From the IMG/VR virus record IMGVR_UViG_3300042301_001235, positions 1-36,254 of that record: DNA of 36,254 nucleotides; one strand, 5' to 3'. The number at the start of each line of letters is the position of its first letter. The first letter of the stretch is position 1. Of this stretch, positions 11,222-35,946 are shown piece by piece. Under the pieces are notes generated by a model, which saw nothing but the letters and a program-made list of their open reading frames with translations, made no database searches and had not been told where the DNA came from. Both the position numbers and the translations under genes were made by a program. The DNA comes from a virus.

Positions 11222-12871
11222 TTAAAGCGTGTTAAGACCGTGAACGTATACTTTTCCGTAGAATTCTGGACGAACTACTTTCTTCGCGTAACGTGTCATA
11301 ACACCTTTACGTGGAGTGAAGTTCACCGGATCGTATACAAGCGGAGTCATAATTAATGGAATATATGGACTAAATACAGCACCCGTTTCAAGGAACTGAG
11401 TACCACGGAATCCCATAAGGATTACATTCTCTTTCATGTATGGGTTTTTGTATACGGTGTAACGATTATTTACTGAACCAATTTTTTGAACACCAGCAGC
11501 AAATTCCATTTTGTTACCATCTGTATCAGCAGCAAATCCTGGGATAGACTCGAGGATAGTTGCAACTGCAGGAGATGTTACTAAGAAGTTAGCACCACCA
11601 CGTAATGTTTTTTGGTGAATTTTATTAGATACTTTTTGAAGTTTAGTACCTAAAGTTTGGAACCATCCACCTTGGGTGTTATAGAATCCATCTCCTAAAC
11701 CTGGAGTAGCTGTACCTGCTGCAAGAGTGGTAAATGATGTACCATCAAATATTGTATTGTTTCGAGCTGACCAATATTCAGTTGTTGGAGCTGCTGCAAT
11801 TAACATATCAAGGATTTCAAGATCGATTTCCATTGATACATATTCAGACAACATTGAAGTCAATTCAGCTTCAGCATCAATTGAATGGTATGCATTTAAG
11901 TCTTGAGCAAATTCAGGTGTCCAAACTGCTTTCAACTTACGTGTTTTAGCAACGATTGGTTCTGATTGCATTTCAAGGTTAATTTCTGGAATGTCGATAT
12001 CAACATTATATCCATTTGCATACGTAGTTTTATCTTCAAAATCACCTCTTGTAATGTCGGTAGGCTGTTTGCTATAATTCAATCGAATTGTTCCTGCAGT
12101 GATAGCAGCTTGAACGCTAGTTGCGATAGATGAAGAAACTACAAATGATGCGGTAAAGTTTGAAGTAATTGTTGAAAATGCTTGTACTGGAGCTAATTCA
12201 GTACCTGCTGCTACTAATGTAAATGAACGAACTGCATATAAATCTGCATCAGTTGGAACATTAACAGTAACCATTTTGTATTGAGTTGAACCTGAATAAG
12301 CAGAATCACCATTAACTTGTACGGTAGTTGGAGTAGATCCAGTTGCAATTTCAGTTGCAGTCAAAATTGATGAAGAAACTGAATTAATTGAATATCCAAA
12401 ACGACCAGCCCCATAAAGACCGCCTGATGGATCATTTGCAGTAGTGGTAACACCGAACATTGAGTCATCAGCGTTAGGAGAACCAAACGGATCACCTGTT
12501 CTGTTTAAATTGTCGTTATCAAATCCTGGTTGAGCTGTACCATATTTAAAGTCTAGATAGAAAATAAGACCTGATGGTAAGTTCATTGGTTGAACTGAAA
12601 CGAATTCTTTTGCAGCAAATTCAGCAAAGATACGACGTACCAATGGAAGTGCTACACCTGCCCACTCTTCTGAACCAGCTGCTACACCAGTTGAAGAAGC
12701 TTCTTTTACTAATTGACGTGCTTGGTTTTCAAGCAATTGAGCCATTCCGGCTTTTTCTGTTTCGCCCTTAAGGCCTTCTAATAAACCGGTTCTTTCCCAC
12801 TTTGAAGCCAATGCTTTTGCTTGGTTTCGTTGTACGAAATCATTGGTTTGTAATAAATTTGAGATACTCAT
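11222..12871 (-). CDS. gp23: Major capsid protein, gp23-like
   Basis: The 549-aa product aligns in layout with T4 gp23. A charged N-terminal propeptide ends at about LVKE57-A58, matching the gp21 cleavage region FLTE-A of T4. A helix VALPLVRRIFAEFAA and the gp23 signature VSVQPMN (residues 91-97) plus LPSG follow. The middle holds a Ser/Thr-rich insertion (about residues 165-270), then SEPIVAKTRKLKAVWTPEFAQDL and the C-terminal LTPLVYDPVNFTPRKGVMTR-type segment. A purine-rich AAAAAGGAAAAAAAATG leads the start. It is 30 nt after the scaffold gene and ahead of a strong terminator. About 440 copies line the T4 head, so high expression is expected. Confidence 0.95.
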   Translation of the reverse strand: MSISNLLQTNDFVQRNQAKALASKWERTGLLEGLKGETEKAGMAQLLENQARQLVKEASSTGVAAGSEEWAGVALPLVRRIFAEFAAKEFVSVQPMNLPSGLIFYLDFKYGTAQPGFDNDNLNRTGDPFGSPNADDSMFGVTTTANDPSGGLYGAGRFGYSINSVSSSILTATEIATGSTPTTVQVNGDSAYSGSTQYKMVTVNVPTDADLYAVRSFTLVAAGTELAPVQAFSTITSNFTASFVVSSSIATSVQAAITAGTIRLNYSKQPTDITRGDFEDKTTYANGYNVDIDIPEINLEMQSEPIVAKTRKLKAVWTPEFAQDLNAYHSIDAEAELTSMLSEYVSMEIDLEILDMLIAAAPTTEYWSARNNTIFDGTSFTTLAAGTATPGLGDGFYNTQGGWFQTLGTKLQKVSNKIHQKTLRGGANFLVTSPAVATILESIPGFAADTDGNKMEFAAGVQKIGSVNNRYTVYKNPYMKENVILMGFRGTQFLETGAVFSPYIPLIMTPLVYDPVNFTPRKGVMTRYAKKVVRPEFYGKVYVHGLNTL

Positions 12872-12901: not shown

Positions 12902-13954
12902 TTACAATAATCCTGCTAATTTTTTCCATCTGTTAGCTAATTCGAAGCCTTCAGATAAAACATTTGTTGTTTCTACACTTGGAGCCGTAGTTCTCGTTGG
13001 TTTAGACGCGATAGATTCTTTAACTACTCGCTTCTTTGTTGGACGATTAAAACTTTCCGCTAATGTAGAAAATACTAATTTAACTTCTCTTGTATTTCCA
13101 GCTCTATCAAAATTTTCAATTACTTTCATTTTTTGAGCTTCATTCAATTCAAAGTTACGGAACAACTTGTTAGTGTAAAGAAGTTTAGCGTTAAGCAAAT
13201 TAACTTCATTGATAATACTTTTTAATTGTTTAACTGTTCGGTATGCTTCTTCCAATTCAGTTTTAGTATCATCTAATTCCATTGCCATTGCATCAACATC
13301 TTCTTCTGTCATGGTCATTGAATCTGATTCTTTATCTTCTGGAAATTCATTTCCATCTTCTTCACGAAGAATTGCTTCAATAATTTCTTCAATGCTTTCA
13401 TCTTCATCTTCATCACCATACATACCTTCCGGCATCATTTCTTCTTCTTCTCCTTCGTACATTCCTTCCATAGACATAGACATATCATCAACATCTTCTT
13501 CTGGCATTGTATCTAAATCTCCTTCTAATTCACGAATGATAGATTCTAATTCTAGATCATCTTCTGCCATATCCATTCCTTCATTGTACTCAGCAGTCAT
13601 TTCTTCTTCTGATGCTGGCATTTCTTCTGCAGGCGCTACCGCACCTTCTTCTTCACCGGCCATTCCAACTTGGAAGTTATAATCTTTACCACCAACTGAT
13701 GCTGCTAAAGAATCATCTGTCCAACTGAAATCGTCACCCATCTCCGCTCCTGCTTCTGCACCAGCGTCTACTACTGGTTCTTCTGCGGGCATTTCTTCTT
13801 CGCCTTCAACTTCGTTTTGTAGCTTTGTTTGCAACATAGCTTCGAGTCTAGGAGCGAATGCTTCTTGTAAAGCAATTTTTGCATTTGCAAGAGCAGTTTC
13901 CTTAACTGTCTTTGCATCAGCAATTGCTTGTTTTAGCAAGTCTGATTTTGCCAT
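12902..13954 (-). CDS. gp22: Prohead core scaffold, gp22-like
   Basis: A 350-aa, strongly acidic protein. The N-terminal helix (MAKSDLLKQAIADAKTVKET) is followed by a long Glu/Asp/Met-rich disordered region (about residues 50-215). A coiled coil (about 222-265, LDDTKTELEEAYRTVKQLKS) and a helical C-terminus with LNEAQKMKVIENFDRAGN follow. It ends in a Lys/Arg-rich tail with FELANRWKKLAGLL. gp22 forms the inner core on which gp23 assembles and is then degraded by gp21. Position directly before gp23 and the acidic low-complexity body support this. TTAAGGAGAAAAAAAATG is the strongest ribosome site in the window. Confidence 0.85.
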   Translation of the reverse strand: MAKSDLLKQAIADAKTVKETALANAKIALQEAFAPRLEAMLQTKLQNEVEGEEEMPAEEPVVDAGAEAGAEMGDDFSWTDDSLAASVGGKDYNFQVGMAGEEEGAVAPAEEMPASEEEMTAEYNEGMDMAEDDLELESIIRELEGDLDTMPEEDVDDMSMSMEGMYEGEEEEMMPEGMYGDEDEDESIEEIIEAILREEDGNEFPEDKESDSMTMTEEDVDAMAMELDDTKTELEEAYRTVKQLKSIINEVNLLNAKLLYTNKLFRNFELNEAQKMKVIENFDRAGNTREVKLVFSTLAESFNRPTKKRVVKESIASKPTRTTAPSVETTNVLSEGFELANRWKKLAGLL

Positions 13955-14130: not shown

Positions 14131-14367
14131 TTAAAGTGAATGTAGATCTTTAATCCTTTGCATAAATTGTGCAGCTTGTTTTTGTTTTCTTCGTTTGACA
14201 CTTGGTTTTACAAATTCTTTGCGATCTTTTGTTTTTTCTAAAACTTCGGTAGCTTTTACTTTACGTTTCCAAGTGCGCATTGCAAATCCTAAATCTTGAT
14301 TTACTACATTTACAGCCGTGGGGTTGCCTGGCACAATTGTTTGATGTTGTTTTTGTTTTTTATTCAT
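14131..14367 (-). CDS. rpsU: bS21-like ribosomal protein
   Basis: This 78-aa basic protein matches the bS21 pattern. It has an F-A-M-R-x-W-K-R-K-V helix where cellular S21 has A-L-R-R-F-K-R, then an RKEFVKPSVKRRKQKQAA segment (cellular form: RREFYEKPTxxRKRxxxxA) and a helical basic tail QFMQRIKDLHSL. The first 27 residues (MNKKQKQHQTIVPG...) are an unusual extension. bS21 sits at the mRNA exit/anti-Shine-Dalgarno region of the 30S subunit, and phage copies are known in aquatic phages. It could replace the host protein to favour phage mRNAs. It lies at the end of the terminase-portal-protease run, just before a terminator. Confidence 0.75.
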   Translation of the reverse strand: MNKKQKQHQTIVPGNPTAVNVVNQDLGFAMRTWKRKVKATEVLEKTKDRKEFVKPSVKRRKQKQAAQFMQRIKDLHSL

Positions 14368-14377
14368 ATATGATTAA

Positions 14378-14854
14378 TTAAATTTCTTGTTGTGGCTTTT
14401 TTGCAGATTGTCTAACATTAAATCTAAAATGTTTTAATTCTGGTTTCTGTGCTAAATAACCTTGAAGCTTTTGTGATTCTAATGCAGGATCTTGTCCTAA
14501 TCTAAAATAAAAATATCCAATTTTACCAGATTGCGATAATGTTTTCTTAATTACCGTAAAACCTTTTCGTTCTGCCCATTCTTGAATTTCTTGTGACGTT
14601 TGTTGTGCAGTTGCTGGATCTCGAAGTACGTATTCAACTCCACCTTGATAATCAGTTAAATTATTAACCAATTGTGCTTCATCTAAATCTCCTTCTTTCA
14701 TTGTAGCTGTTAAATCTTTCATTGCAGCTGCAATTTCTTTTGCATTAGTTACGTCATCTTTAGTAAACTTATAAGGAGATGATTGTATAGTTTTTTCGTC
14801 TTGTTCTTTTAATCCAAAGAATTCTTTGTATAATTTTCTAAACTTGCTCATCAT
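14378..14854 (-). CDS. Unknown protein in the head-assembly cluster (158 aa)
   Basis: The product begins MMSKFRKLYKEFFGLKEQDEK, an amphipathic leader with an L-x-E site at residues 15-17 that resembles capsid-targeting peptides. A helical stretch (about 30-65) and a small alpha/beta segment with EWAERKGFTVIKKTLSQSGK and GYFYFRLGQDPALES follow. No family is recognised. AAGG lies before the paired ATGATG start, and it sits 40 nt after the 124-aa gene. Its place between prohead protease and bS21 suggests a head core or internal protein processed by gp21; that is inference. Confidence 0.65.
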   Translation of the reverse strand: MMSKFRKLYKEFFGLKEQDEKTIQSSPYKFTKDDVTNAKEIAAAMKDLTATMKEGDLDEAQLVNNLTDYQGGVEYVLRDPATAQQTSQEIQEWAERKGFTVIKKTLSQSGKIGYFYFRLGQDPALESQKLQGYLAQKPELKHFRFNVRQSAKKPQQEI

Positions 14855-14894: not shown

Positions 14895-15269
14895 TTATTC
14901 AACTTCAAAATATTTGCTTAAACCTGAAGCAATATCTTCATATGCTGCACTCAATCGTTGTTGTAATTGATTCATTTCTTTTGCTGTTGATTCAAATACT
15001 TTATATGAATCATTCAATGTTTTCATATGACGCTTAATTGTTACGTTATCAAACCAATCTCCAGATTCAGATGCAATTTGTTCTGCTTTATTTACGATAT
15101 CCTTAACTCGTTCCGTTAATTCTTGCAAATCGCCACGACCATATACTGAATCAGACATTTCAGAAAAACGTTTTACTTGCGCAACGAATTCAGCTTTTTC
15201 TTCTTTTGATAACGGTTGTGGCTGATCTTCAGTGATCATTTCCAAAATATATTTTAAATTCGTTTTCAT
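14895..15269 (-). CDS. Unknown helical protein in the head-assembly cluster (124 aa)
   Basis: A mostly helical, acidic 124-aa protein. It starts MKTNLKYILEMITEDQPQ, a leader with I-L-E and I-T-E sites, and continues with LTERVKDIVNKAEQIASESGDWFDN and a coiled-coil-like KEMNQLQQRLSAAYEDI. The start overlaps the protease stop as TAATG, so translation is probably coupled to gp21. This coupling and the cleavable-looking leader favour a small prohead core component. No known family is recognised. Confidence 0.65.
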   Translation of the reverse strand: MKTNLKYILEMITEDQPQPLSKEEKAEFVAQVKRFSEMSDSVYGRGDLQELTERVKDIVNKAEQIASESGDWFDNVTIKRHMKTLNDSYKVFESTAKEMNQLQQRLSAAYEDIASGLSKYFEVE

Positions 15270-15902: not shown

Positions 15903-16583
15903 TTATTCTCCTAATGCTCTTACACGTTCTGATATTTTAATTAATCGTTCTGATATTTTATTTAATGATTTTTCTACTGAAGTACCATATCCATTTCTTG
16001 CAACACTAGATTCGGTTTTTAAACGAGATGCATAATTCACTGTTTGTTCAATTTCTTGCAATTGTCGAGCAACTTCTTTAATGGTTTGTTTTATTTTTTG
16101 TTCCGGCGTTGATTTTGAATTTCCCGTTGCATAAGCTCGATATGATTCAACTAAATGTTCATATTTTTTATCTATAATTTCCGAAACGCTTTTCATATGT
16201 TTACTTGGTTTATTTGGCATAGGTTTCGATGGATATTCATATGATTTATTAAACCAATCGTTTTCATCATCGCTAAATGGAAATTTATCATTGAATTCTT
16301 CTTCTTCTGATTCTGGATGTTGATATGTATCATCTTTCCATCGAAATGATGGTGGAGTATTTACAGATTCATACGTTTTTGTTTTATTTTTCCATTTACC
16401 TGGTTTAGCAAATGCAGCTGGAGTACTAAATCCTGCCACTGCACCCGTTACATTTTGTTCGTCTAATTCTTCTTCATTTTCGCAAACACACTGATCTTTT
16501 GGCCTATCACATGAATCACAATAATCACTCGATTCAATCTCATCAAAACGCTTTTTCATTTCATTTAATAACGATTTCATCAA
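15903..16583 (-). CDS. Unknown Cys-cluster protein in the head-assembly cluster (226 aa)
   Basis: The protein starts MMKSLLNEMKKRFDEIESSD, a possible targeting leader. A four-cysteine knuckle follows (residues 22-34, CDSCDRPKDQCVC), which could bind zinc. The middle is Glu/Asp- and Pro-rich and low in complexity, with VTGAVAGFSTPAAFAKPG at 45-62. The C-terminal 90 residues are helical and basic, with a KSLNKISERLIKISERVR repeat. The start overlaps the 282-aa stop by 4 nt (ATGA), implying coupled translation. No family is recognised. Location between portal and protease suggests a prohead core protein. Confidence 0.6.
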   Translation of the reverse strand: MMKSLLNEMKKRFDEIESSDYCDSCDRPKDQCVCENEEELDEQNVTGAVAGFSTPAAFAKPGKWKNKTKTYESVNTPPSFRWKDDTYQHPESEEEEFNDKFPFSDDENDWFNKSYEYPSKPMPNKPSKHMKSVSEIIDKKYEHLVESYRAYATGNSKSTPEQKIKQTIKEVARQLQEIEQTVNYASRLKTESSVARNGYGTSVEKSLNKISERLIKISERVRALGE

Positions 16584-22304: not shown

Positions 22305-23213
22305 TTATTGTTTGTTTTCTTCAGAATTATTTGCAGCTGATTGAATTTTACTTAATTTTTTTACTGCTAATTTATTTAATAATTTGTAAAAATTTTTAGT
22401 ATCAGCTAATTCTGCATCTTTAAATAACTTGTTTAATACTTGCGCAATCGTTTCAATTCTACCAATATTTCCTCGTTCTCTTTCCAACGCTTTGGTTATT
22501 TTTTTAACTGCATCTTTTTCTTGTTCTTCTGGATCTTCTTCAGCTGCTGGTTCTTCTGCTGGTGGTGCAGTTGGAGCTGGTGCGGGTGGAGCAGCTGCAT
22601 CAGGTGCCGGAGGTGTTGCTGCGGCATCAGGTGCCGGAGGTGTTGCTGCGGCATCAGGTGCTGGAGGAGCTGCGGCATCAGGTGCTGGAGGAGCTGCGGC
22701 ATCCGGTGCCGGTGCGTCTGCTGGAGCGTCTGGTGCTGGGGCTTCTTCTTCTGGAGCATCTGTTGGTGCGCCTTGTTCTCGTAAAACTTTTGCTATTTTT
22801 CTACGAATATATTCTCTAACCAATTGTTCTTTTTTTGCATTAGACAAACGATTAATACGTTCTTTAAGTTCAGTGGTAGTAACACCATGATCAATTTCAT
22901 CTCGTTTTTCTAGATACTCATCTGAATCTTCTTCTTGACGTTTACGTAAAACATTCATTGCATGTTTTGGATCATATTCACCATCTTCAAGTTTTTTATA
23001 TAAACGGTCTTTGTCAGTATATTTCGGATACATTTTACCGTCGTCTTGCATGGCTTTATCTGTTTTACGAGCAACCTTTTCTTGTTTCTTACCCGTAGAA
23101 TATGGGTTTAATTTTTCATCTTTATCATCATATGTATAATCTTTAAGATCTTTACGATATGTTGGTTTTTTATTTTCTGGTTTTTTATACTTGCTTTTGT
23201 GTTTTTCAGCCAT
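22305..23213 (-). CDS. Unknown protein with Pro-Ala-Asp repeat linker (302 aa)
   Basis: The N-terminal 120 residues are very hydrophilic (KHKSKYKKPENKKPTYRKDL...). A helical LVREYIRRKIAKVLREQ follows (about 130-147). Residues 148-225 are a low-complexity Pro/Ala/Asp linker of roughly five PPAPDAAA units. The C-terminal 75 residues are helical (VLNKLFKDAELADTKNFYKL). The linker is coded by repeated ggtgccgg-type DNA that is much richer in G+C than the rest of the window. No family is recognised. The layout (charged head, flexible linker, helical tail) suggests a scaffold or tether, but this is inference. Confidence 0.6.
   Translation of the reverse strand: MAEKHKSKYKKPENKKPTYRKDLKDYTYDDKDEKLNPYSTGKKQEKVARKTDKAMQDDGKMYPKYTDKDRLYKKLEDGEYDPKHAMNVLRKRQEEDSDEYLEKRDEIDHGVTTTELKERINRLSNAKKEQLVREYIRRKIAKVLREQGAPTDAPEEEAPAPDAPADAPAPDAAAPPAPDAAAPPAPDAAATPPAPDAAATPPAPDAAAPPAPAPTAPPAEEPAAEEDPEEQEKDAVKKITKALERERGNIGRIETIAQVLNKLFKDAELADTKNFYKLLNKLAVKKLSKIQSAANNSEENKQ
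22590..22700 (-). repeat. GC-rich coding repeats (PPAPDAAA units)
   Basis: Short in-frame units of about 24-27 bp, repeated about five times, encode the Pro-Ala-Asp linker of the 302-aa protein. The plus strand carries repeated gcatcaggtgccgg/gcatcaggtgctgg strings. The region is a local GC peak and prone to slippage. Confidence 0.75.
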
Positions 23214-32830: not shown

Positions 32831-33565
32831 TTAAAAGTATATCCATTTAAAGTTATATGTTTTTGTAGTATATGAAGATCCATTATTTTTATAAAATATA
32901 ACATCATATTTTTCATTTTTTTTATTTTTAATATCCGAACTAATTAACTCAATTAACTGGCTTAAAGTTTTCATGTTTTGTTTGTTTTTTTCATCAACAA
33001 CACGATTCCAAAAATTAAATCTCCAAACATACTTATTAAATTCGTCTATCAAAAAATTTGATGCACCGGTTTCGTCATCATTAATTAAACTAGTATATGG
33101 TGAAAAATATTTTTTTGGATTTTTTGTTATCATGTTATAAAAACGATCAAATATAATTTCCAATTTAGCATTAACATATAAATCATATACTGGTTTAGTT
33201 CCCGTAATAAAATCTACATGTACATGATCTGTATGTGGATTTGGTCCTGTATAATTTTGTTCACTGAATGAAGGCGCCGAATATATTTTTCTGTTATAAA
33301 TAATATATTGTACGTTTAATTTTTTACCATGTTTGATTAAAAAATTTTTTAAAGCTTCCATTGTTGATTTAGAACCAGACCAATCCCATGCATTTCCATA
33401 TGCATGCTGCGATAATTTATCAGATCCTGCAATAGTTCGATAATTATATCCACCAATCGTTGACCATTTATTTGCTGCAAATTGTGGCTGAGCTAATACG
33501 AACTTTTTACAGAATAATGCATTTTCTGTATAAGTCGACTCCGTTAACATATGTTTTAATTTCAT
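32831..33565 (-). CDS. M15-like peptidoglycan peptidase with capsid-targeting-like leader
   Basis: A 244-aa protein whose residues 35-120 show the VanY/M15 metallopeptidase pattern. It has SQHAYGNAWDW (H54 and D61 as metal ligands) and HTDHVHVDF (H114 and H116). The C-terminal half is Lys/Asn/Tyr-rich and not recognised. The leader MKLKHMLTE ends in L-x-E followed by Ser, matching the start of the 178-aa protein. The start overlaps the 606-aa stop as ATGA, so translation is coupled. It could act as an endolysin or as a virion-borne wall-cutting enzyme; there is no signal peptide. The leader favours packaging, but this is inference. Confidence 0.72.
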   Translation of the reverse strand: MKLKHMLTESTYTENALFCKKFVLAQPQFAANKWSTIGGYNYRTIAGSDKLSQHAYGNAWDWSGSKSTMEALKNFLIKHGKKLNVQYIIYNRKIYSAPSFSEQNYTGPNPHTDHVHVDFITGTKPVYDLYVNAKLEIIFDRFYNMITKNPKKYFSPYTSLINDDETGASNFLIDEFNKYVWRFNFWNRVVDEKNKQNMKTLSQLIELISSDIKNKKNEKYDVIFYKNNGSSYTTKTYNFKWIYF

Positions 33566-35382
33566 TCTTCTTTTACTTTGATATTACTTGATGAAATATA
33601 TGCTGTTTTTGTTCCAGATCCGCCACTTACCGATCCAATTGAGTACATTGTATATTTTGAATCACCTTTACCTTTAATTTTTCCTGTTTTAACGGCAGTA
33701 ACAGTATATTTCGGGAGTAATCGATCTTTTGGTACATTTGGAATAAATGATTCAAATTGATTTGAAGACCATGAATATAAATTAACTGTTGTTGCGGTTA
33801 TAGTAAAAGTTTTTTTCTTCTTTTTAGGTTTTGGTTCTGGTTTTGGAGTTGGTTTTGGTTCCGGTTCTTCTGTTTTTGCAGTTTTACCGTGTTTAATATT
33901 TAATTGATTGATTATATCATTTTGCAAAATTTTAGTAAATTTTAAATCAGTATCAACAGTTTTAATATCAGTTTCAAATTGTGATTTTGGATATTTATAC
34001 CATGATGTATCATTTAAAAAATATACATAATCGGCTTCTGTATTTATAGTAATCATACCATCCGTAGTTTGCCATTCATATGGATATGTTACCGATTCGA
34101 CTGCGACGGAATTAGTTTTGATATCTAAATCGTTTTGTGCAATTTTAGAATAAACGCCGTCGACATATTTTCCTAAACTGTTACCATCAATAGTTGTAAT
34201 ATAACCTGTTTTAAATTTTAATGATTGTTTTTGCATTGACAATGATGAATCATCTGTAAACCATGTTCCCGTATACGTTCTATTATTATTAAATGTAGCC
34301 GTTCCTTCTTTTAAAAATACTTTTAATTTTGCATAAGAATCAATTGTTGCTCTAGTTCCTTTGCCAATTGTAACTACATTTTCTTTTGTTATATCTCCTT
34401 TGAAACTTTCTATTTCAGTAGGTTTTTGAATTCCAAAATATGTAATTGAAGATGCAATTATTGGATATCCATCTTTAAACTTACCTGTTAATTTTACATT
34501 TTCATTGCTAGTTTCATCTTGAAATATCATTGTTCCATCATATGGTAAATATGTATCAATAATTTCTCCTGCAGGGCCTACTATTGAAGTCCAAAGTATA
34601 TCACCATAAACACCTTTAATTGGTCCTCGCATTTCGACATCAAATGTAATTATTTTTTGACCATTTCCCAAATCTTTTGTTACAGTAGGAATGATATCCG
34701 AGGTAGCTTGGGAACTAATTTTTATTTCTATATCTGTTACATTTGACAAATCCGGAAATGATAATGATGATATATCAGTATTTGTTGCGGATGCAACATC
34801 TTTAAATGTAGTCATCCAGTTTTCAAAACTATTTTTACTTATTATTGGAATTTTATCTAATTTTGTTATTGTTGCAGCTCGAGATCGAGACGCACCTGTA
34901 ACTGGAGTATCACTTTTTAGTTTATTTTGAATTTCTTCAATTGCATTTTCATACACGGATGTATCATAAATCCATATATGAAATACCTTTTTACGGTTTG
35001 TTGATTTAACTGGAATTATAATGAACGTATGTTTTCCGTCATTATATCTTGCGTTAGCACCTGAGCCAACCGTACGACCCATCGAACAAATTGTTTTGAT
35101 ATCATCTAAAATAAAATTATCATTAACCGATGCATCTTTTGATGGTTTAACAAATGTAATTACAAATGCAGAATATGCCCCTCGTTGTTTTGCAATCTTT
35201 TGAGCATTTTGAGTACGAAGTTTTCCTTTTCCATATGATACCGTACCTAATAATTTTACTATATAGCCTGATTTAGATCTAGGAGTATCTCCAGCAGTAA
35301 CAGATAATTCAGTAGTGCCATCTACTTCAGAAACATCTTCACGAAGCATTTTTAAAATAAGATTTTCTATTAATGTACTCAT
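33562..35382 (-). CDS. Large modular protein with capsid-targeting-like leader (606 aa)
   Basis: The leader MSTLIENLILKMLREDVSE ends in an L-x-E site. Residues of about 40-150 form an alpha/beta domain (YSAFVITFVKPSKDA, KHTFIIIPVKST). The middle has MORN-like turns (GTMIFQDE, LTGKFKDGYP, GTATFNNNRTYTGTWF). A Pro/Lys/Glu linker (about 500-520, EPEPKPTPKPEPKPKKKKK) precedes an SH3-like C-terminal domain (TATTVNLYSW...YTVTAVKTGKIKGKG). MORN plus an SH3-like end is unusual in a phage protein. It sits between the kinase-like and peptidase genes. It may be an internal virion protein or wall-binding module; no family is assigned. Confidence 0.6.
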   Translation of the reverse strand: MSTLIENLILKMLREDVSEVDGTTELSVTAGDTPRSKSGYIVKLLGTVSYGKGKLRTQNAQKIAKQRGAYSAFVITFVKPSKDASVNDNFILDDIKTICSMGRTVGSGANARYNDGKHTFIIIPVKSTNRKKVFHIWIYDTSVYENAIEEIQNKLKSDTPVTGASRSRAATITKLDKIPIISKNSFENWMTTFKDVASATNTDISSLSFPDLSNVTDIEIKISSQATSDIIPTVTKDLGNGQKIITFDVEMRGPIKGVYGDILWTSIVGPAGEIIDTYLPYDGTMIFQDETSNENVKLTGKFKDGYPIIASSITYFGIQKPTEIESFKGDITKENVVTIGKGTRATIDSYAKLKVFLKEGTATFNNNRTYTGTWFTDDSSLSMQKQSLKFKTGYITTIDGNSLGKYVDGVYSKIAQNDLDIKTNSVAVESVTYPYEWQTTDGMITINTEADYVYFLNDTSWYKYPKSQFETDIKTVDTDLKFTKILQNDIINQLNIKHGKTAKTEEPEPKPTPKPEPKPKKKKKTFTITATTVNLYSWSSNQFESFIPNVPKDRLLPKYTVTAVKTGKIKGKGDSKYTMYSIGSVSGGSGTKTAYISSSNIKVKEE

Positions 35383-35398
35383 TACATACTACTTTTAT

Positions 35399-35406
35399 AT
35401 AAATAT
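35399..35406 (-). promoter_or_regulatory. ATATTTAT motif before the 606-aa gene
   Basis: It lies in the 27-nt gap after the kinase-like gene, reads TATATTTATATAAAAG on the coding strand, and ends 16 nt before the ATG. Confidence 0.5.
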
Positions 35407-35409
35407 AGA

Positions 35410-35946
35410 TTACCAATCAACCATTACCATATTTCCGTCCCACATCATGATGTTGTCTGATTTGAAATCTAAATCCAAATCTAATTCCGGAATATTTAGT
35501 TTATCGATATCTGTTTTTAATGCATTTAAAAAATTATCAATCATAGGATCAATTGAATCTGTTTCCTGAATAAAATTAAAAATAGAAACTTCGCCGCCTT
35601 CATCTCGTGCATAAACAGCAAAATCTTGCATAAATAAATCAATTGATTTTTTAATTCGTACTGGTAAATCTGAAGCATTTGCCATAATGTACATGTTTTT
35701 ACCATCTACATAATAAACCGGAATAAAAGTTGTAAATTCATTATATCGATCTACAATTCGATCTGCAACTTCATATTCATCTTGTTCTTTAGTAATTTTA
35801 AAAACTTTATCTTCTCCATCAATTTGATAAACGCGACCATTATCTCCGCCGGCTATAAAACGAAATTCTTTATTTTCTATTTTTTTTAAACAACGTTGTA
35901 AATCTGAATCAGATAATTCTCGAAGTAAATGTTTTAATCGTATCAT
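35410..35946 (-). CDS. Minimal protein-kinase-like protein with capsid-targeting-like leader
   Basis: A 178-aa protein with a shortened kinase fold. It has a glycine loop AGGDNGRVY (32-40), a VAIK-like lysine in VFKITK (K50), a possible helix-C glutamate at E57 or E59, and a hinge-like YYVDGKNMYIMANA. The catalytic loop is D160-F-K162-S-D-N165, and it ends on D177-W178 where kinases have DFG. The substrate lobe after DFG is absent, so it may be a kinase-like ATP-binding switch or a small-molecule kinase. The leader MIRLKHLLRE-LS ends in L-x-E. AAAGGA precedes the ATG, and the upstream gene ends 2 nt before it. Confidence 0.65.
   Translation of the reverse strand: MIRLKHLLRELSDSDLQRCLKKIENKEFRFIAGGDNGRVYQIDGEDKVFKITKEQDEYEVADRIVDRYNEFTTFIPVYYVDGKNMYIMANASDLPVRIKKSIDLFMQDFAVYARDEGGEVSIFNFIQETDSIDPMIDNFLNALKTDIDKLNIPELDLDLDFKSDNIMMWDGNMVMVDW

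What the first reader, a model, noticed from the sequence alone, without database searches (positions are those of the whole stretch)
32831..35946. Three adjacent genes share a capsid-targeting-like N-terminal leader, suggesting a head-packaged effector set
The products begin MIRLKHLLRE-L, MSTLIENLILKMLRE-D and MKLKHMLTE-S: short basic amphipathic peptides ending in L-x-E. T4 internal proteins (IPI-III, Alt) carry such a leader (for example MKTYQEFIAE), which directs them into the prohead and is cut by gp21 after (L/I)-x-E. A gp21-like protease is encoded here. The leaders sit on otherwise unrelated proteins: kinase-like, MORN/SH3-like and M15-like peptidase. Similar starts occur on the 124-aa (MKTNLKYILEMITE-D) and 158-aa proteins. 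A shared leader on unrelated bodies is best explained by shared trafficking, pointing to a set of proteins injected with the DNA.
Basis: partly seen in the sequence, partly recalled or inferred. Interest (0 to 1): 0.75.

Follow-up and report, generated by a model that had tools for sequence, protein, structure and literature searches.

The report
Phage cargo proteins sharing capsid-entry tag
A group of uncultured, T4-like viruses, probably of Bacteroidota, puts the same kind of short, protease-removable tag on many unrelated proteins, which very likely loads them into the virus head so that they enter the next cell with the DNA; this extends a trick known from phage T4 to a new and gene-rich set of candidate effectors.

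Summary
The window is a 36 kb fragment of a far-T4-like myovirus with its own gp21/S77 prohead protease. The three genes encode an APH/protein-kinase-like protein, a MORN-like/SH3-like protein and an M15-type peptidase, each starting with a short leader ending in (L/I)xE.

In 58 distinct related loci the slot between the kinase gene and an endonuclease gene carries 0-2 fast-changing genes. All 69 non-redundant products have (L/I)xE within their first 22 residues, against 10.4% of internal windows.

In 53 distinct kinase genes P1 Glu10 is invariant, P3 Leu8 is 52/53 with synonymous codon changes, and P2 is free. Leu4, Leu7, Leu8 and Glu10 fall on the positions that control targeting and processing in the T4 capsid-targeting sequence. 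Prohead core proteins carry the same site. Two adjacent genes of a relative share a 54/60-nt leader, then diverge to chance. The slot's first gene shares an upstream AT element with structural genes.

Best reading: a capsid-targeting leader, removed by the prohead protease, on a swappable cargo set. Targeting and cleavage are well supported indirectly; injection is inferred. Known kind (T4 internal proteins), new variant.

The parts
35410..35946 (-). 178-aa APH/protein-kinase-like protein, first gene of the leader-bearing set; conserved in all related loci
   Evidence: AF2 pLDDT 86; Foldseek hits are protein kinases/APHs, best E 5.6e-4, prob 0.9-1.0 but TM only about 0.3-0.45; K50, D160, N165, D177 invariant in A1
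35917..35946 (-). leader MIRLKHLLRE (codons 1-10), predicted cleavage after E10
   Evidence: P3 L8 52/53, P1 E10 53/53, P2 variable, synonymous codon changes; residues 1-8 pLDDT < 50
33562..35382 (-). 606-aa slot-1 cargo protein: N-terminal alpha/beta region, MORN-like repeats, P/K-rich linker, C-terminal SH3-like beta domain
   Evidence: alignment A3; AF2 C-terminal domain pLDDT about 81-93, rest low; no PHROG or convincing Pfam family
35338..35382 (-). leader MSTLIENLILKMLRE (codons 1-15), predicted cleavage after E15 (possible earlier site LIE|N)
   Evidence: related slot-1 leaders end in (L/I)xE in all relatives
35398..35406 (-). ATATTTATA element upstream of the slot-1 gene, shared with structural operons
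   Evidence: ATATTTAT/TATTTATA present upstream of 44/50 slot-1 genes and 42/46 of the structural genes just before the kinase gene; 3/48 endonuclease, 3/34 primase, 0/29 gp46/47-like genes
32831..33565 (-). 244-aa slot-2 cargo protein: M15-type zinc peptidase
   Evidence: SQHAYGNAWDW and DHVHV motifs conserved in most A2 members; weak PDB profile hits incl. L-alanyl-D-glutamate peptidase E 0.47
33539..33565 (-). leader MKLKHMLTE (codons 1-9), predicted cleavage after E9
   Evidence: L7 and E9 near-invariant in A2 despite 22-36% identity
15269..15901 (-). gp21-like S77 prohead protease, the presumed leader peptidase
   Evidence: Peptidase_S77 E 3.8e-32; phrog_207 E 3.8e-54
15228..15269 (-). 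N-terminus of 124-aa prohead core candidate, site LKYILEMITE|DQ
   Evidence: (L/I)xE|D kept as TLLE|D, TILE|D in relatives
14804..14854 (-). N-terminus of 158-aa prohead core candidate, site FFGLKE|Q
   Evidence: kept as FFGLTE|Q, FFGLTE|A, FFGLNE|E, FFGINE|S; phrog_14971 virion structural E 3.6e-5
15903..16583 (-). 226-aa core candidate, leader MKSLLNE|M
   Evidence: MKSFLREM, MKSFIKEI, MRSLLKEM in relatives
22305..23213 (-). 302-aa protein with an internal site YIRRKIAKVLRE|QG resembling the slot-1 leaders
   Evidence: site conserved in five phages
12902..13954 (-). scaffold-like protein with several (L/I)xE sites and C-terminal RWKKLAGLL
   Evidence: alignment of seven phages
11222..12871 (-). 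major capsid protein with predicted propeptide site ARQLVKE|ASSTG
   Evidence: phrog_138 E 4e-68; site reads VKE|A, VSE|A or ISE|A in seven phages

Best explanation
The leaders are capsid-targeting sequences. During prohead assembly the short, usually basic amphipathic N-terminus binds the scaffold/core and draws each protein into the prohead; the phage's gp21-like S77 protease then cuts after (L/I)xE, releasing the mature protein inside the head beside the DNA. The proteins leave with the genome and act in the next cell before phage genes are expressed: the kinase-like protein by phosphorylating host targets, the M15 peptidase on cell wall during entry or late lysis, the MORN/SH3-like protein in an unknown way. 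The region after the conserved kinase gene is a variable cargo slot, and further leader-bearing genes lie elsewhere in relatives' genomes. Shown: the leader, its conservation pattern, identity of the site with that of head proteins, leader transfer between bodies, shared upstream element. Inferred: packaging, cleavage, injection, activities.
For: 69/69 slot proteins have (L/I)xE in the first 22 aa vs 10.4% of internal windows; P3 L 55, I 14; P1' Gln 39/69; net positive leader in 54/69. In 53 distinct kinase genes L4 52, L7 48, L8 52, E10 53, with positions 6 and 9 free and synonymous codon changes, so selection acts on the peptide. These match T4 IPIII, where residues 4 and 7 govern targeting and 8 and 10 processing (PMC9026906). 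The same (L/I)xE site is conserved in core proteins, and (V/I)xE in the capsid precursor. Genome-wide excess only in the S77 phages tested, with a peak at residues 8-12. Leader transfer: 54/60 nt identical, then 22/60. Shared upstream element with structural genes. Leader disordered, body folded in the kinase model. T-even internal proteins are known to be diverse with only the targeting sequence conserved (PMC3012670).
Against: No virion proteomics for this group was found in the papers searched. Simple pattern matches also fall on a primase and the protease itself. The leaders vary in length (E at residue 4-20), which is looser than in T4. Mel-JY01 alone shows only a weak excess. The slot proteins fall mostly into two families, so they are not 69 independent cases. 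Proteins of 600-750 aa are large cargo for passage through a portal. Only two control phages were used.
Confidence: 0.8

Rival explanations
1. The leader-bearing proteins are prohead core/assembly factors that are cleaved by the protease but stay in, or leave, the head without acting in a host cell.
For: The 124-, 158- and 226-aa proteins beside the protease carry the same sites and look like core proteins.
Against: Slot proteins are dispensable: six records have an empty slot and the 169 kb relative gave no match to either family. Their bodies look like a kinase fold and an M15 peptidase, not scaffold, and they diverge fast.
Confidence: 0.13
2. The slot is a lysis or cell-wall cassette: the M15 peptidase and SH3/peptidoglycan-binding partners act in lysis, and the leaders are ordinary amphipathic starts.
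For: The nearest cultured M15 relative (Arthrobacter phage 1191A) lies next to a holin; one slot-1 protein has a sub-threshold PG_binding_1 match; no other lysis enzyme was identified in the relatives, though this search was inconclusive.
Against: That relative has no leader. Protease-like P3/P1 conservation is not expected for a lysin, and the same leaders sit on a kinase-like protein and on genes far away. G001, without the slot families, must lyse by other means.
Confidence: 0.07
3. Chance: short basic amphipathic starts with L-x-E are common.
For: A primase and some unrelated genes match the pattern; the window alone gives only 7/34.
Against: 69/69 vs 10.4%, invariant P1 and near-invariant P3 with free P2 in 53 distinct genes, no significant excess in the two control phages.
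Confidence: 0.02
4. The conserved 5' end is kept for an RNA or DNA reason (ribosome loading, overlap with the upstream gene, recombination site), not for the peptide.
For: Kinase starts overlap or abut the preceding gene in several loci; leaders can be exchanged as DNA blocks.
Against: Leader codons vary synonymously (four codons each for L4, L7 and L8, five for R3) while residues stay; different slot proteins keep the peptide rule with quite different DNA.
Confidence: 0.03

Closest known systems
T4 internal proteins IPI, IPII, IPIII and Alt with the 10-residue capsid-targeting sequence (PMC9026906, PMC3012670)
   Same: Short N-terminal leader cut at (L/I)xE by a gp21-type protease; conserved leader on diverse, dispensable, fast-changing bodies; key residues at 4, 7, 8 and 10.
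   Different: Different phage group and probable host; cargo bodies unrelated; cargo includes a kinase-like protein and an M15 peptidase; leader length varies, P1' often Gln; several leader classes.
Giant-phage ejection proteins of SPN3US, phiKZ and 201phi2-1 (PMC5694885, PMC10052503)
   Same: Head proteins with propeptides cut by a phage protease and ejected with DNA.
   Different: Mostly long propeptides, motif AxE or SxE, S80-type protease.
bS21-encoding Bacteroidetes phages (PMC9723584)
   Same: Same gene set of bS21, protease, portal, terminase and capsid in one region; the window encodes bS21 at 14131-14367, so it probably belongs here.
   Different: The passages read describe structural genes and bS21; searches for the second leader motif and for capsid targeting in Bacteroidetes phages found no report of a leader.
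Phage T7 gp16 internal core protein (from memory, not checked here)
   Same: A wall-acting enzyme carried in the head and ejected.
   Different: No capsid-targeting leader of this type; a podovirus.

Membership tests
T4-type capsid-targeting sequence (CTS) proteins | Leader of about 10-20 residues at the very N-terminus ending in (L/I)xE | tested here: met
   69/69 slot proteins, E at residue 4-20
T4-type capsid-targeting sequence (CTS) proteins | A gp21/S77 prohead protease in the same phage | tested here: met
   homologues in G001, G002, G004, G005, G008
T4-type capsid-targeting sequence (CTS) proteins | Same cleavage consensus as the phage's own head and core proteins | tested here: met
   the capsid precursor has Val/Ile at P3
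T4-type capsid-targeting sequence (CTS) proteins | Conservation at positions 4 and 7 (targeting) and 8 and 10 (processing) | tested here: met
   10-residue kinase leader only (PMC9026906); longer leaders not tested for this
T4-type capsid-targeting sequence (CTS) proteins | Presence in the virion and cleavage in vivo | not testable with these tools
   No proteomics held
T4-type capsid-targeting sequence (CTS) proteins | Ejection into the host cell | not testable with these tools
   Inference by analogy
T4 internal protein families (IPI/IPII/IPIII/Alt) by body homology | Detectable similarity of the mature domains | tested here: not met
   No such Pfam or PHROG match for the window proteins or the cargo tested
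APH/protein-kinase-like fold | Fold and catalytic K, D, N, D residues | tested here: met
   all four invariant; TM-scores modest and the chain ends at the DW motif, so activity is unknown
M15 peptidase | SxHxxGxAxD and HxHV zinc motifs | tested here: met
   (motif lost in the fused L052 protein); profile hits weak; no Pfam M15 match for the window protein at E <= 1

The most novel reading that the evidence does not exclude
A widespread group of uncultured Bacteroidota phages carries a large, swappable arsenal of head-packaged effectors (of the order of ten or more leader-bearing genes in one 169 kb genome, in several leader classes including L-x-E-N-M-x-R-F-G-T-K-N-L-x-E), among them a small kinase that is injected with the DNA, so that the leader can be used as a search key for first-minute phage effectors and counter-defence proteins.
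Probability: 0.5. Interest if true: 0.8.

Novelty: new variant of a known kind. Interest (0 to 1): 0.62.

Why it matters
Proteins injected with phage DNA act before host defences cut in, yet in T4 only a few are understood. A sequence rule that marks such proteins in uncultured phages makes them findable by computation and directly testable in a cultured relative. It also shows that leader-plus-hypervariable-body evolution, known from T-even phages, is used by a distant phage group with enzyme-like cargo.

Tried and rejected
(1) Pfam/PHROG/NCBIfam on cargo proteins: almost nothing above cut-off; PrlF-antitoxin, DRAT and sulfotransferase matches rejected as sub-threshold; the DRAT-like protein is only 128 aa. 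(2) Direct relatives of the 606- and 244-aa proteins in IMG/VR: only a 100% identical contig; solved by anchoring on the kinase gene. (3) Kinase relatives in annotated phages or in genome contigs: none. (4) AF2 of the 606-aa protein: mean pLDDT 56, Foldseek uninformative. (5) Search for another lysis enzyme in relatives: nothing found, not conclusive. (6) Per-gene test of the AT element against leader genes in whole genomes: not significant, probably because many leader genes lie inside operons; the locus-based test is clear. (7) One immuto leader (ILSEQFRRMQKLAGIITE) resembles the scaffold C-terminus; a single case, kept as a lead only. (8) Virion proteomics for immuto: the Baltic Flavobacterium phage paper held does not mention this phage or mass spectrometry.
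Full report
WHAT IS THERE. The window is a 36,254-base IMG/VR fragment, 33% G+C, with essentially all genes on the minus strand. It encodes the head module of a distant T4 relative: T4-type major capsid protein, scaffold-like protein, S77 prohead protease, portal, terminase, PhoH and ribosomal protein bS21, then a gp46/47-like protein (named from its sequence), primase and a phage endonuclease I. The nearest cultured relatives are Flavobacterium phage immuto (capsid protein 56% identical) and Microcystis phage Mel-JY01 (55%). bS21 next to protease, capsid, portal and terminase is the hallmark of phages predicted to infect freshwater Bacteroidetes (PMC9723584), so this phage probably belongs there. 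The three genes of the finding are at the stated places with the stated starts.

THE SLOT. The 178-aa kinase-like gene has 59 relatives in IMG/VR, and an alignment-based search matched 248, of which 80 were kept. In 58 distinct loci the region between it and the endonuclease gene holds none, one or two genes; six records listed have an empty slot. The products differ greatly: single-linkage clustering of bodies gives clusters of 41, 18, 3, 2, 2, 1, 1 and 1, and the members aligned with the window proteins are 16-36% identical to them. Yet every one of the 69 non-redundant products has (L/I)xE within 22 residues of its start, whereas internal windows of the same proteins have it in 10.4%. Two main leader forms occur: long ones like MKQNLLERIIRTMLFE|QS for slot 1 and short ones like MKTNLHE|QG for slot 2, plus MIRLKxLLxE-like ones. 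P1' is Gln in 39 of 69. The counts are not independent because of shared descent, but all eight body clusters follow the rule.

WHY IT LOOKS LIKE A PROTEASE SITE. In 53 distinct kinase genes position 8 is Leu (52) or Ile (1), position 10 is always Glu, and position 9 varies freely (Arg, Gln, Phe, Lys, Leu, His); codons for the fixed leucines vary, so the peptide and not the DNA is under selection. That is the (L/I)xE rule of gp21. Leu4 and Leu7 are also nearly fixed; in T4 IPIII residues 4 and 7 control targeting and 8 and 10 processing (PMC9026906). The same site is kept in proteins that should be protease substrates if this phage matures like T4: the 124-aa protein (MITE|DQ, TLLE|DQ, TILE|DK), the 158-aa protein (GLKE|Q, GLTE|A, GINE|S) and the 226-aa protein (LLNE|M, FLRE|M, FIKE|I). 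The capsid precursor has LVKE|A, IVSE|A or LISE|A, that is Val or Ile at P3. In the AlphaFold model residues 1-8 of the kinase are disordered while the body folds well.

GENOME-WIDE. The strict leader pattern is in excess at N-termini over internal Met positions in the window and four relatives, not in Cellulophaga phages phi4:1 and phi38:1, which I used as non-T4 controls (that they lack S77 is assumed from their being unrelated phages, not searched). The positional profile peaks at residues 8-12 in the S77 phages (2.4-2.5 per 100 positions against 0.87 in controls). In the 169 kb relative G001, leaders such as MIRLKHILTE|Q, MIKLKSILNE|G and MKLRNLLFE|A sit on many small unknown proteins, and a second class (LxENMxRFGTKNL) occurs on others. 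The last of the first group is conserved with its leader in immuto (69% identity). Two neighbouring G001 genes share 54 of their first 60 nucleotides (MKKLENILAENMRRFGTKNL) and then fall to 22 of 60, i.e. the leader has been copied onto an unrelated body.

EXPRESSION. The element ATATTTATA lies upstream of the structural gene before the kinase gene in 42/46 loci and of slot-1 genes in 44/50, but rarely upstream of the endonuclease (3/48), primase (3/34) or gp46/47-like gene (0/29). Whether it is a promoter is inference, but slot-1 genes carry the same upstream signal as structural genes.

WHAT THE CARGO MAY DO. The kinase-like protein matches protein-kinase and APH folds (best PDB E 5.6e-4, probability 0.9-1.0, TM about 0.3-0.45) and keeps Lys50, Asp160, Asn165 and Asp177 in all 20 aligned relatives, ending right after the Asp-Trp that corresponds to the metal-binding motif. 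The 244-aa protein has the M15 zinc motifs, but only weak database hits. The nearest cultured relative of its catalytic part, in Arthrobacter phage 1191A, sits next to a holin and has no leader. The 606-aa protein has MORN-like repeats and an SH3-like C-terminal domain by inspection and model shape only. Neither slot family was found in the 169 kb relative (one search had no positive control in the set), and its slot is empty by direct reading, so they are accessory.

MECHANISM AND LIMITS. Best reading: the leader binds the prohead core, the protease removes it, and the mature proteins ride in the head and are injected. The first two steps rest on strong indirect evidence; injection and activities are inference from T4, where internal proteins are diverse anti-defence factors with only the targeting sequence conserved (PMC3012670; PMC9391042). 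Rivals are head-assembly factors that are not injected, or for the M15 gene a lysis role. Chance is contradicted.

NOVELTY. The principle is known from T4. New are the phage group, the size and variability of the predicted cargo set, the kinase-like and peptidase cargo, and the leader classes. Searches of the open literature for the second leader motif and for capsid targeting in Bacteroidetes phages found no earlier report; the library is incomplete.

Noticed in passing
L061:16011-17364 (G001), L065:9268-12873, L073:15956-16805, L075:3024-3401: A second leader class, LxENMxRFGTKNLxE, with two (L/I)xE-like sites about 12 residues apart, on several unrelated accessory proteins.
   Followed up: partly
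window upstream of 5968, 8915, 16580, 17468, 22305, 23243, 25269 and 33562 genes (minus strand): ATATTTATA/TATTTATA element (TATTTATA is the reverse complement of the T4 late promoter TATAAATA as I recall it) upstream of structural genes; a second element TTCTTATATT precedes other genes in G001, perhaps another expression class.
   Followed up: partly
window:12902-13954 C-terminus; L080:1676-2140: Scaffold C-terminus (L/I)(S/N)E-x6/7-R(W/M)xKLAG(L/I) is conserved in seven phages, and one immuto protein has nearly the same motif as its N-terminal leader (ILSEQFRRMQKLAGIITE): leader as scaffold mimic?
   Followed up: no
window:14131-14367: Ribosomal protein bS21 gene between capsid and protease genes (Pfam E 2.6e-9).
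   Followed up: partly
window:23243-25246: 667-aa protein related to a Mel-JY01 gene annotated cytidylyltransferase-like; starts FPGGFKP and contains EKTDGQN, which recalls nucleotidyltransferase plus RNA-ligase motifs, among structural genes; relatives reach 1028 aa.
   Followed up: no
L080:2262-2576 (immuto26A_189): 104-aa leader-bearing protein annotated as tRNA(Ile2) agmatinyltransferase, probably a wrong name; its G001 relative also bears the leader.
   Followed up: partly
window:31219-32160: The DNA primase starts MKNLKLLQLLES and matches the leader pattern, a likely coincidence that shows the limit of a regex.
   Followed up: yes
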